DNA of 64,000 bases from Fimbriimonas ginsengisoli Gsoil 348 (GTDB lineage Bacteria > Armatimonadota > Fimbriimonadia > Fimbriimonadales > Fimbriimonadaceae), in NCBI RefSeq assembly GCF_000724625.1, contig NZ_CP007139.1:4278001-4342000 (forward strand). The letters are read 5' to 3'. The notes beneath the pieces are model-generated. The model made no database searches and was not told where the DNA came from. It saw only the letters and a program-made list of their open reading frames with translations. A program made the position numbers and the translations under genes. Positions 1 through 1,835 of this stretch are shown piece after piece; within the stretch, counting starts at the first letter, position 1, and each line of letters begins with the position of its first letter.

Positions 1-325
1 ACGAAGCGCAGAGCCCCAGCGCGAAGATCGCCGAATCGTTCTTCGGCGCCCGACCCGCCACGCTGACTTCCACGATGCGCCGAACCACGCGCTCTCCATC
101 CTCGTGGATGAGCTTGAGCACGTTCTGGGCGTTTTCCTGGGTCAGCTTCTGCGGGGCGACGTAGAAGGTCCCGGCCTCGCTGCCGAGGATCAGGAACCGG
201 TCAAGCACCGTCCAACCGTCGACTTCATAGACGAAGCCGCCGGCATGATTCAGGACTTGTCCAGATCCCGGGATTGGCATCGACTGGTGAGTCGTCGCGC
301 GGTTAAATAGCTTTGCGTAGTTCAT
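1..325 (-). CDS. rsr: Ro60/TROVE domain RNA-binding protein, 5' part only
   Basis: The minus strand from an ATG at 325 reads about 108 residues without a stop to the window edge, so only the N-terminus is present. The start of the protein reads as a short basic lead, then a VLNHAGGFVYEVDGW stretch, then DRFLILGSEAGTFY and the segment APQKLTQENA. This matches the conserved N-terminus of bacterial Ro60 orthologs (Rsr), ring-shaped HEAT-repeat proteins with a C-terminal vWFA domain that bind Y RNAs and misfolded RNA ends. An AGGTG Shine-Dalgarno lies 6 nt before the ATG. The gene lies downstream, on the same strand, of a tRNA-like Y RNA candidate (699-958), which is the usual bacterial neighbourhood for rsr. 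The family call is firm. The rest of the gene is outside the window. Confidence 0.88.
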   Translation of the reverse strand, partial: MNYAKLFNRATTHQSMPIPGSGQVLNHAGGFVYEVDGWTVLDRFLILGSEAGTFYVAPQKLTQENAQNVLKLIHEDGERVVRRIVEVSVAGRAPKNDSAIFALGLCAS

Positions 326-698
326 TCCTTTCACCTCTCCGGTGGGTCGTGGCGCACGCGTTTGCGGAGCGCTCGATCGGGTCGAGGGAGCGGGAAGGAA
401 TTCGTTTTGGGTATTCCGCCGCTCCAGGTAGGAGGGGCGGTCGAGTGGCAGACTACTCTGCCGGGTTCGCCACCCCGAAACTGGGGGTATTCAGGTTCTC
501 TGAGCCGCTAAGTCGCGACACCACGAAATCTCGCGGCGCTTGGCCGGCGAGAGTTTCTTTATAGATGCGCGTTATGGCTAACATGGCTTTCCTAATTGGC
601 GGATATGAATTCGTTACGTCGCGGACAAGTACCTAGTCGTCGGAGGGTTTCGTTATGAGCGAGAACCGACGCCATCCGGCCCGCGGCGAGCTTTCTAT
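326..698 (-). other. rsr leader / spacer between Y RNA candidate and rsr
   Basis: This 373-nt stretch between the tRNA-like RNA and rsr has no convincing gene. On the minus strand it holds a hairpin with arms TCTCG-CGGC and GCCG-CGAGA around 526-550. An ATG at about 574 preceded by AGGAAAG opens a 43-codon reading frame with no recognisable similarity, which is probably fortuitous. The stretch may be a long 5' untranslated leader if rsr is transcribed together with the RNA. Confidence 0.35.
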
Positions 699-958
699 TT
701 TAGTCGTTTGGGCAAGTTGGCGACCTGGATGTTTTAAGCGCTCTACCCACTGAGCTACCGGTCTTGCGACCGAGCCGGACTTGAACCGGCGACCTCTCGC
801 GTCATAGGCGGTAACCCAAGCCTTTCGGCCCAAACGAGAATTGAACTTGCACGGACGAGGAGCGTTTCTGGGAAGAGGTTCCGAGGAACCCCGCGGGGGT
901 CGAACCCGCTTGCTTTCGCTTACCAGATAACCCAGAATCAGCGGCCCGTGCGACTAAA
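699..958 (-). ncRNA. YrlA-like Y RNA with several permuted tRNA-like modules
   Basis: Read on the minus strand, this segment folds into a closed structure. Its ends pair as TTTAGTCG (951-958) with CGACTAAA (699-706). The 3' half contains a circularly permuted tRNA: T-arm GCCGG-TTCAAGT-CCGGC (774-790), an acceptor stem closed by a GCAA tetraloop (758-773), then a D-arm GCTC-AGTGGGTA-GAGC (740-755). A kinked anticodon-like stem is closed by CCTATG (803-808) and CATCCAGG (724-731). Two further T-arm plus tetraloop-closed acceptor units lie at 875-909 (GCGGG-TTCGACC-CCCGC, CTCG loop) and 833-850 with 816-833 (GAAA loop). Known YrlA RNAs have one tRNA-mimic module with no free CCA end and are encoded next to rsr, as here. 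The multi-module form is unusual. The fold is by eye; ends are approximate. Confidence 0.72.
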
Positions 959-996: not shown

Positions 997-1026
997 ATAG
1001 TGTCAGACCCACCCGGACGTTGTCAA
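997..1026 (-). promoter_or_regulatory. Sigma-70-type promoter for the Y RNA candidate
   Basis: On the minus strand a perfect TTGACA (1021-1026) is followed after 18 nt by CACTAT (997-1002), giving a start near 990, about 30 nt before the closed RNA structure. An AT-rich tract with GAATATTCGAATAT character lies just upstream (about 1035-1060) and could act as an UP element. The -35 is perfect; the -10 is weak. Confidence 0.5.
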
Positions 1027-1078
1027 GGGTTTGTTGGAAAGTATTCGAATATTTTCTTAACTATTAACGCGAAGCGTT

Positions 1079-1197
1079 GTAGCCGCAGGTTGGCTCGTAC
1101 CTGTGCGAGAGCCTTTCGTCGTAGCGTCGGCGCCCCCGCCGATGTTCCGGTGTACCGAAGGTACACCAGGCGCAGGTACGAGCCAACCTGCGGCTAC
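1079..1197. repeat. Long palindrome: 25-bp perfect inverted repeat with inner hairpin
   Basis: The arms 1079-1103 and 1173-1197 are exact reverse complements (each begins or ends with GTAGCCGCAGG). Inside, GGTGTACC and GGTACACC (about 1149-1167) form another short hairpin. The element lies between thpR and the Y RNA promoter, has no coding content, and looks like a REP-like or non-autonomous mobile palindrome. Confidence 0.7.
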
Positions 1198-1216
1198 ACG
1201 TCCTTCGGACGTAGGG

Positions 1217-1259: not shown

Positions 1260-1835
1260 TTAGGCGACGGGAAGGTTTCCGAGATTCCAACGCTTTAAAA
1301 CCTCGTACCGCCCATCTGGCGTGCTTTCAAAAAGGAGCACCTGGGCGACATCCCAGTCGGCGATCGCCAGCTCGCCTAGCTCGGTCGACAGGCCGGTTGC
1401 CATCCGCCCAACCTCCTTCGAGCCGGGTGAGAGGCGGGCGAGGGTGAGGTGGGGCACGTAGGGTTTCTCATCCAGGGGCAAAAGCGTTTTGAGTGCCTCC
1501 TCGAGAGCAGCTTGCAGATGCTTCAGTGCCGGGAGATCGCCGTCGACTCCTGCCCACAGGGCGCGGGGGCGATAGAGGCTGGGAAACGCCCCCAAACCCT
1601 TCACGACTAACCGGACGGGCTCAGATCCGGCGCAAATCGGAACGCAAAGGGCGTCGATGGCTTCCACGCTCTCCTCCGGAAGATGGCCTAAGAACACCAC
1701 GGTGAGGTGGATCTTCTCCGGCCGGACGAACCGAACCCCTTGCCGGGTCGCGACGTCCTTCAGGCGGTCTTGCAAGGCGACCACGCGGTCGCGGACCACT
1801 TCGCTTAGTTCTAGACCGATAAAGAGCCGCTTCAT
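1260..1835 (-). CDS. thpR: RNA 2',3'-cyclic 3'-phosphodiesterase (ThpR/LigT family)
   Basis: At 191 residues this is the normal length of the family. It carries the two catalytic HxTx motifs of the 2H phosphoesterase fold, HLTV at residues 43-46 and HLTL at 129-132, each in its usual beta-strand context. Family members hydrolyse 2',3'-cyclic phosphates on RNA ends and can ligate 2'-5' in reverse. The gene is on the same strand as, and immediately upstream of, the Y RNA candidate and rsr. A joint role in handling RNA ends is plausible but unproven. A prepilin-like gene lies 52 bp upstream. Confidence 0.88.
   Translation of the reverse strand: MKRLFIGLELSEVVRDRVVALQDRLKDVATRQGVRFVRPEKIHLTVVFLGHLPEESVEAIDALCVPICAGSEPVRLVVKGLGAFPSLYRPRALWAGVDGDLPALKHLQAALEEALKTLLPLDEKPYVPHLTLARLSPGSKEVGRMATGLSTELGELAIADWDVAQVLLFESTPDGRYEVLKRWNLGNLPVA

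What the first reader, a model, noticed from the sequence alone, without database searches (positions are those of the whole stretch)
699..958. Expanded YrlA-like Y RNA with three T-arm/acceptor modules next to rsr
Minus-strand RNA with long-range closing stem and three permuted tRNA-like units, each a T-arm joined to an acceptor closed by a tetraloop (GCAA, GAAA, CTCG). Known YrlA RNAs have one such module and no free CCA. A multi-headed tRNA mimic bound by Ro60 would be new. The 3' unit (740-790) also has an intact D-arm and a kinked anticodon-like stem.
Basis: partly seen in the sequence, partly recalled or inferred. Interest (0 to 1): 0.9.

Follow-up and report, generated by a model that had tools for sequence, protein, structure and literature searches.

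The report
Tandem Y RNA array beside rsr
The stretch is not one three-headed RNA but a row of three separate Y RNAs in front of the bacterial Ro60 (rsr) gene, one of them carrying a complete tRNA copy in rearranged order; many bacteria carry such rows, and their shared core closely resembles the Y RNA core of animals.

Summary
Minus-strand bases 619-951, just upstream of rsr (Ro60 orthologue; rtcB follows it), hold three separate Y RNA units, each with its own Rsr-type stem (5' GGGCCGAWGG..UGG-GUUAUC / 3' CCA..CUUGYCC) and a different head. Unit 1 (849-951) has a T arm and an acceptor-like hairpin. Unit 2 (704-837) has a circularly permuted four-armed tRNA (anticodon-type, T, loop-closed acceptor, D). 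Unit 3 (619-686) is a short hairpin. Relatives carry 1-8 units upstream of rsr, on the rsr strand. The fold covaries strongly in 18 relatives and in 41 matches from other phyla and phages. Two aspects go beyond the YrlA descriptions I could read: about half of the tRNA-like heads keep an anticodon arm, and the core, UUAUC included, resembles metazoan Y/stem-bulge RNA (Rfam's nematode sbRNA model scores two bacterial units above its gathering threshold). Function is inferred from known RoRNPs; transcription, Rsr binding and processing are untested. The 2014 survey of bacterial Y RNAs could not be read, so novelty is provisional.

The parts
849..951 (-). Y RNA unit 1: P1, Rsr-type motif, P2, UUAUC, small GAAA hairpin, T arm, acceptor-like hairpin; no D arm
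   Evidence: Core model R1 36.0 bits; R2 42.8 bits; nematode sbRNA model RF01656 28.9 bits; fold z -2.46
875..909 (-). unit 1 T arm (893-909) and acceptor-like hairpin closed by CTCG (875-892)
   Evidence: Sequence and fold
704..837 (-). Y RNA unit 2: YrlA-type with a circularly permuted four-armed tRNA head
   Evidence: R2 118.7 bits, E 3e-25 (the unit is one of the 18 in the model); Rfam YrlA 42.9 bits; covariation in 18 relatives and 41 others
   Evidence: Conserved in all units
710..717 (-). unit 2 Rsr-type motif, 3' side (ACUUGCCC)
797..811 (-). unit 2 anticodon-arm-like hairpin, loop CUAUGAC (3 pairs form here, 4 in most relatives)
774..790 (-). unit 2 T arm
   Evidence: 100% of cells paired in relatives
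758..773 (-). unit 2 acceptor stem closed by GCAA
   Evidence: 5 of 6 pairs with compensatory change
740..755 (-). unit 2 D arm
   Evidence: Invariant in 18 relatives, varies with pairing kept in 41 others
619..686 (-). Y RNA unit 3: short unit without tRNA-like head
   Evidence: R1 31.6 bits, also the only R1 match in the whole genome search; fold alone not unusual (z -0.18 for 616-687)
997..1026 (-). promoter-like TTGACA ... CACTAT upstream of the array
   Evidence: GACAC[A/T]AT box with an upstream TTG shared with three congeners at the same place before the array; the consensus scan did not list it
1..325 (-). rsr, 5' part (gene runs out of the window; rtcB follows it)
   Evidence: TROVE and vWA_Ro60; PDB Rsr/Ro60 matches

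Best explanation
The locus encodes a tandem set of three bacterial Y RNAs in front of rsr-rtcB. Each unit folds on its own and is expected to bind Rsr through its lower stem (GGGCCGAWGG / CUUGYCC). Probably one transcript starting near 990 is made and then cut or trimmed into separate RNAs. The heads differ: a permuted four-armed tRNA mimic (unit 2), a T-arm/acceptor mimic (unit 1) and a plain short hairpin (unit 3). Rsr would thus carry alternative heads that gate its channel and recruit tRNA-binding enzymes or a nuclease such as PNPase, beside the RtcB ligase that rejoins cleaved RNA. Shown here: unit anatomy, covariation, strand and rsr linkage, the anticodon-arm variant, gene neighbours. 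Inferred: transcription, processing, Rsr binding, effector partner.
For: Motif-only units in relatives: outer-stem positions pair in 86% against 62% (sd 2.2) with swapped arms. Covariation of the tRNA-like unit: 95.5% paired against 78.2%, 20 pairs compensated, score 0.543 against at most 0.123 slid; same fold from RNAalifold; 41 matches from other phyla and phages, 33 of 35 pairs compensated. R2 matches in 69 rsr loci all on the rsr strand. Full-length R2 matches above 53 bits only in genomes with rsr. Same RNAs upstream of phage Ro-like genes. rtcB after rsr.
Against: No expression or binding data. The thermodynamic optimum of unit 2 is another fold, 1 kcal/mol better than the tRNA-like one. 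Unit 3 alone is not unusually stable. Unit 1 lacks a D arm and its 3' motif is CUCG, not CUUG. Most rsr loci (73 of 80) show no rtcB like this one in the held flanks. Where transcription ends, and whether the units are separated, is unknown.
Confidence: 0.8

Rival explanations
1. One long multi-headed Y RNA: units stay joined, closed by 699-706/951-958, and act as a single scaffold.
For: Units lie close together on one strand with a promoter-like site only upstream; nothing here shows cleavage between them.
Against: The closing stem is at chance level; the middle module is the Rsr motif of unit 2; every unit has its own lower stem, and unit number varies from 1 to 8 among relatives.
Confidence: 0.12
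2. A cis-acting leader: Rsr binds the units in its own mRNA leader and controls its own synthesis.
For: The units always lie upstream of rsr on its strand in this class, with no clear terminator found between them.
Against: Many loci of other groups have matches downstream of rsr (for example L103, L106, L134), and Y RNAs are known as separate RNAs in Deinococcus and Salmonella (PMC7790460).
Confidence: 0.15
3. Remains of ordinary tRNA genes (tRNA pseudogenes).
For: Arms look like tRNA arms; a tandem tRNA pair gives a partial match to the same model.
Against: ARAGORN finds no tRNA here; the permuted acceptor stem and the Y stem covary across phyla.
Confidence: 0.02

Closest known systems
YrlA (Rfam RF02553), bacterial Y RNA with tRNA-like domain
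   Same: Rsr linkage, long end-pairing stem, permuted T arm - closed acceptor - D arm order
   Different: Several units in a row; unit 2 also has an anticodon-type arm, absent from the Rfam consensus and from the review's description (PMC8394870); none of 37 genomes reaches the YrlA gathering score
Nematode stem-bulge RNAs (Rfam RF01656) and vertebrate Y RNAs
   Same: Lower stem with CCG.. / ..CUUG, upper UGG/CCA stem, UUAUC at the start of the loop; RF01656 matches units, two above threshold
   Different: Loops unrelated; bacterial units carry tRNA-like heads; no match to RF00019 was listed
rsr-yrlBA-rtcBA RNA repair operon of Salmonella
   Same: Y RNAs, rsr and rtcB side by side (PMC7790460)
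   Different: Here the Y RNAs precede rsr; RtcA and RtcR were not looked for
RYPER of Deinococcus radiodurans (Rsr / Y RNA / PNPase)
   Same: Proposed way of working: Y RNA as tether and gate on Rsr
   Different: No PNPase link tested here

Membership tests
Bacterial Y RNA (YrlA type) | Encoded beside an Rsr/Ro60 gene | tested here: met
   rsr starts at 325 on the same strand; linkage across phyla
Bacterial Y RNA (YrlA type) | 5' and 3' ends pair in a stem with the conserved Rsr motif | tested here: met
   P1 plus GGGCCGAWGG/CUUGYCC in three units; unit 1 has CUCG
Bacterial Y RNA (YrlA type) | tRNA-like domain with T, acceptor and D arms | tested here: met
   Unit 2; unit 1 lacks the D arm; unit 3 has none
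Rfam RF02553 YrlA | Score at or above the gathering threshold of 69 bits | tested here: not met
   42.9 bits; no relative reaches it. So not filed as an RF02553 member; it resembles YrlA in make-up
Bacterial Y RNA (YrlA type) | Bound by Rsr in the cell | not testable with these tools
   Needs pull-down
Metazoan Y RNA / sbRNA | Lower stem, upper stem and UUAUC loop motif | tested here: met
   motif roles from PMC4726728 and PMC4450293. In the window units the loop motif reads UUAUC (unit 1), UUACC (unit 2), UUCUC (unit 3)
Metazoan Y RNA / sbRNA | Reaches the RF01656 gathering threshold of 38 bits | tested here: not met
   Window units 28.9 and 17.4 bits; two units of other bacteria do reach it (40.5 and 38.3)
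Metazoan Y RNA / sbRNA | Common descent with metazoan Y RNAs | tested here: inconclusive
   Similarity is confined to a core of about 50 nt; binding to a conserved protein could keep or recreate it

The most novel reading that the evidence does not exclude
Bacterial Ro60 systems across many phyla use sets of Y RNAs that share the metazoan-type core, including the UUAUC loop motif reported as needed for metazoan DNA replication, with swappable heads, among them complete circularly permuted tRNAs with genuine anticodon loops. The heads would act as Rsr-held decoys or guides for tRNA-cutting and tRNA-modifying enzymes, and the core would predate animals.
Probability: 0.3. Interest if true: 0.85.

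Novelty: new variant of a known kind. Interest (0 to 1): 0.62.

Why it matters
Two questions become testable. First, bacterial Y RNAs have been described as not homologous to vertebrate ones (PMC4726728). A shared core down to UUAUC in rsr-linked RNAs of Chloroflexota, Planctomycetota, Verrucomicrobiota, Deinococcota and others points to common ancestry or a common Ro60 constraint, and suggests that UUAUC may serve Ro60 biology and not only replication. Second, Y RNAs with a real anticodon-type arm, here beside an RNA ligase gene, allow a direct test of the proposal (PMC7790460) that the tRNA-like domain competes with anticodon nucleases.

Tried and rejected
One multi-headed RNA closed by 699-706/951-958: chance-level helix. 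GCC-GAAA-GGC as an acceptor hairpin: it is the Rsr motif of unit 2. Twister-sister, group II intron and miRNA hits: weak; the mir-9456 hit at 1075-1200 is a repeated palindrome. Model R2 matches of range 27-105 in genomes without rsr: the one checked is a tandem tRNA-Asp/tRNA-Phe pair. R1 with filters off scored lower than with filters on and did not recover unit 1 as a whole. Identity of units against linkers in close genome pairs gave no clear answer: units higher in one pair, about equal in one, lower in one. The key papers on bacterial Y RNAs (Chen 2014; Sim and Wolin 2018) are not in the library.

Full report
Setting. The window is part of a 5.23-Mb genome (G000, 4278001-4342000), by its named relatives a Fimbriimonas-like Armatimonadota bacterium (inferred). 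Bases 1-325 minus are the start of rsr: 526 aa with TROVE and Ro60 vWA domains, about equally close to D. radiodurans Rsr (432 bits) and animal Ro60 (414 bits). The next gene after rsr, outside the window, is rtcB (PF01139). Upstream of the RNA region lies a LigT-type phosphoesterase gene (1260-1835 minus).

What relatives show. 37 of 113 genomes of the class have a TROVE match. The DNA upstream of rsr holds repeated blocks of the form NNNNGGGCCGAWGG..UGG-GUUAUC ... CCA....CUUGYCC-NNNN. A search for the motif pair plus stem gives up to 8 blocks per locus (one of the 8 in G009 looks spurious). Choosing blocks by motif only, the outer-stem positions pair in 86% of cases, against 62% (sd 2.2) when arms are swapped among blocks. 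A core alignment of 63 units shows compensatory change in four P1 pairs and all six P2 pairs; those units were chosen partly by stem, so the P1 count is not independent.

The window units. Unit 1 is 849-951, unit 2 704-837 and unit 3 619-686, all minus. Core model R1 finds units 1 and 3 and nothing else in the 64-kb window. Model R2 of the tRNA-like type gives unit 2 118.7 bits and unit 1 42.8 bits; unit 2 was among the 18 sequences of that model. The proposed closing stem is no better than chance.

The four-armed head. In 18 units of the unit 2 type the order is P1, P2, UUA, a 3-4-bp hairpin with a 7-nt loop, T arm, acceptor stem closed by a loop, UA, D arm, P2', P1'. The hairpin varies as UCGC/GCGG, UCGU/ACGG, UCAC/GUGG, UCGA/UCGG and CCGG/CCGG, and its loop is mostly CUNNNAA or CUNNNAC, with U at the place of U33 and variation at the three anticodon positions. 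This is a tRNA opened between D and anticodon arms, joined at the acceptor end, with the Y stem set into the opening. Covariation: 95.5% of cells paired; 20 of 35 pairs compensated; score 0.543 against 0.201 shuffled and at most 0.123 slid. RNAalifold predicts the same arms, the anticodon arm included. In 41 matches from other phyla and three phages, 33 of 35 pairs are compensated (aligned to the model, so leaning towards it), and 21 of 41 keep a 7-nt loop with U33. Rfam's YrlA consensus has only T, acceptor and D hairpins inside (structure line), and a review names only these arms (PMC8394870).

Linkage. In 69 rsr loci plus the window, all 214 R2 matches lie on the rsr strand (short ones of model range 27-64 may be ordinary tRNA pieces). 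R1 matches are on that strand with one exception. In the class, full-length R2 matches above 53 bits occur in 22 genomes, all with rsr. In the named loci many matches of Myxococcales-type genomes lie downstream of rsr. The model also matches RNAs upstream of Ro-like genes of phages FuzzBuster, Cashline and ET08.

The animal-type core. Rfam's nematode sbRNA model RF01656 (consensus UCGGUCCGGAGUCGAUGGGUUAUC...UUCCCAUCGACACCAACUUGACCGU) matches units in many of these loci, on the rsr strand: Limnoglobus L136 40.5 bits and L011 38.3 bits (threshold 38), others below. Outside Armatimonadota, units chosen by lower-stem criteria alone number 28 sense to 1 antisense, and 23 of the 28 have UUAYC within 26 nt after CCG, against 5% of random windows. 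UUAUC and the upper stem are the elements reported as needed for the replication activity of sbRNAs and Y RNAs (PMC4726728; PMC4450293). The same review calls bacterial Y RNAs not homologous to vertebrate ones. Whether the likeness reflects descent or shared constraint is open.

Mechanism. By analogy with known RoRNPs the lower stem would hold the RNA on Rsr, and the head would gate the ring and recruit a partner; in Deinococcus the Y RNA tethers Rsr to PNPase (PMC7790460, PMC8394870). With rtcB beside rsr, tRNA-like heads could act in tRNA repair or decay, or compete with anticodon nucleases, as proposed for Salmonella (PMC7790460). A promoter-like pair (1026-997) is shared with three congeners, which suggests one primary transcript. 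None of this is shown experimentally here.

Limits. Only genome DNA was available. An alternative fold of unit 2 is 1 kcal/mol better than the tRNA-like one. The main surveys of bacterial Y RNAs could not be opened, so tandem copies, the anticodon arm or the UUAUC core may already be recorded there.

Noticed in passing
window 1078-1198: A palindromic repeat (29-nt arms, 97% complementary, 63 nt between them) with 105 full or partial matches in this genome; it lies between the LigT gene and the array and causes the spurious mir-9456 hit.
   Followed up: partly
L010, L008, L017, L074, L014, L011 and others: units listed as type C: A further conserved head (CGGC-GGAAA-GCCG .. GAGGCG..GGA..CGCGG), about 150 nt units in two genera, with 21 compensated pairs in RNAalifold; no Rfam family matched it in L010, L074, L008, L014 and L011. 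The window genome lacks it.
   Followed up: partly
window 1260-1835 (-): LigT / 2'-5' RNA ligase-like phosphoesterase directly upstream of the array on the same strand, so the array sits between two RNA-end-processing genes; not next to the array in congeners whose upstream DNA was read.
   Followed up: partly
L161 (G053) 182-338: A tandem tRNA-Asp/tRNA-Phe pair 4 nt apart gives a partial match to the permuted head, which suggests that such heads could arise from the junction of two neighbouring tRNA genes.
   Followed up: no
L148, L095, L107: Many tRNA genes within a few kb of rsr and the Y RNA units in Chloroflexota, Armatimonadota and Verrucomicrobiota loci.
   Followed up: no
L162 (G040:C5:513500-518300): A YrlA-type unit (78.8 bits) among nine predicted tRNA genes, about 400 kb from the rsr copy on the same contig.
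   Followed up: no
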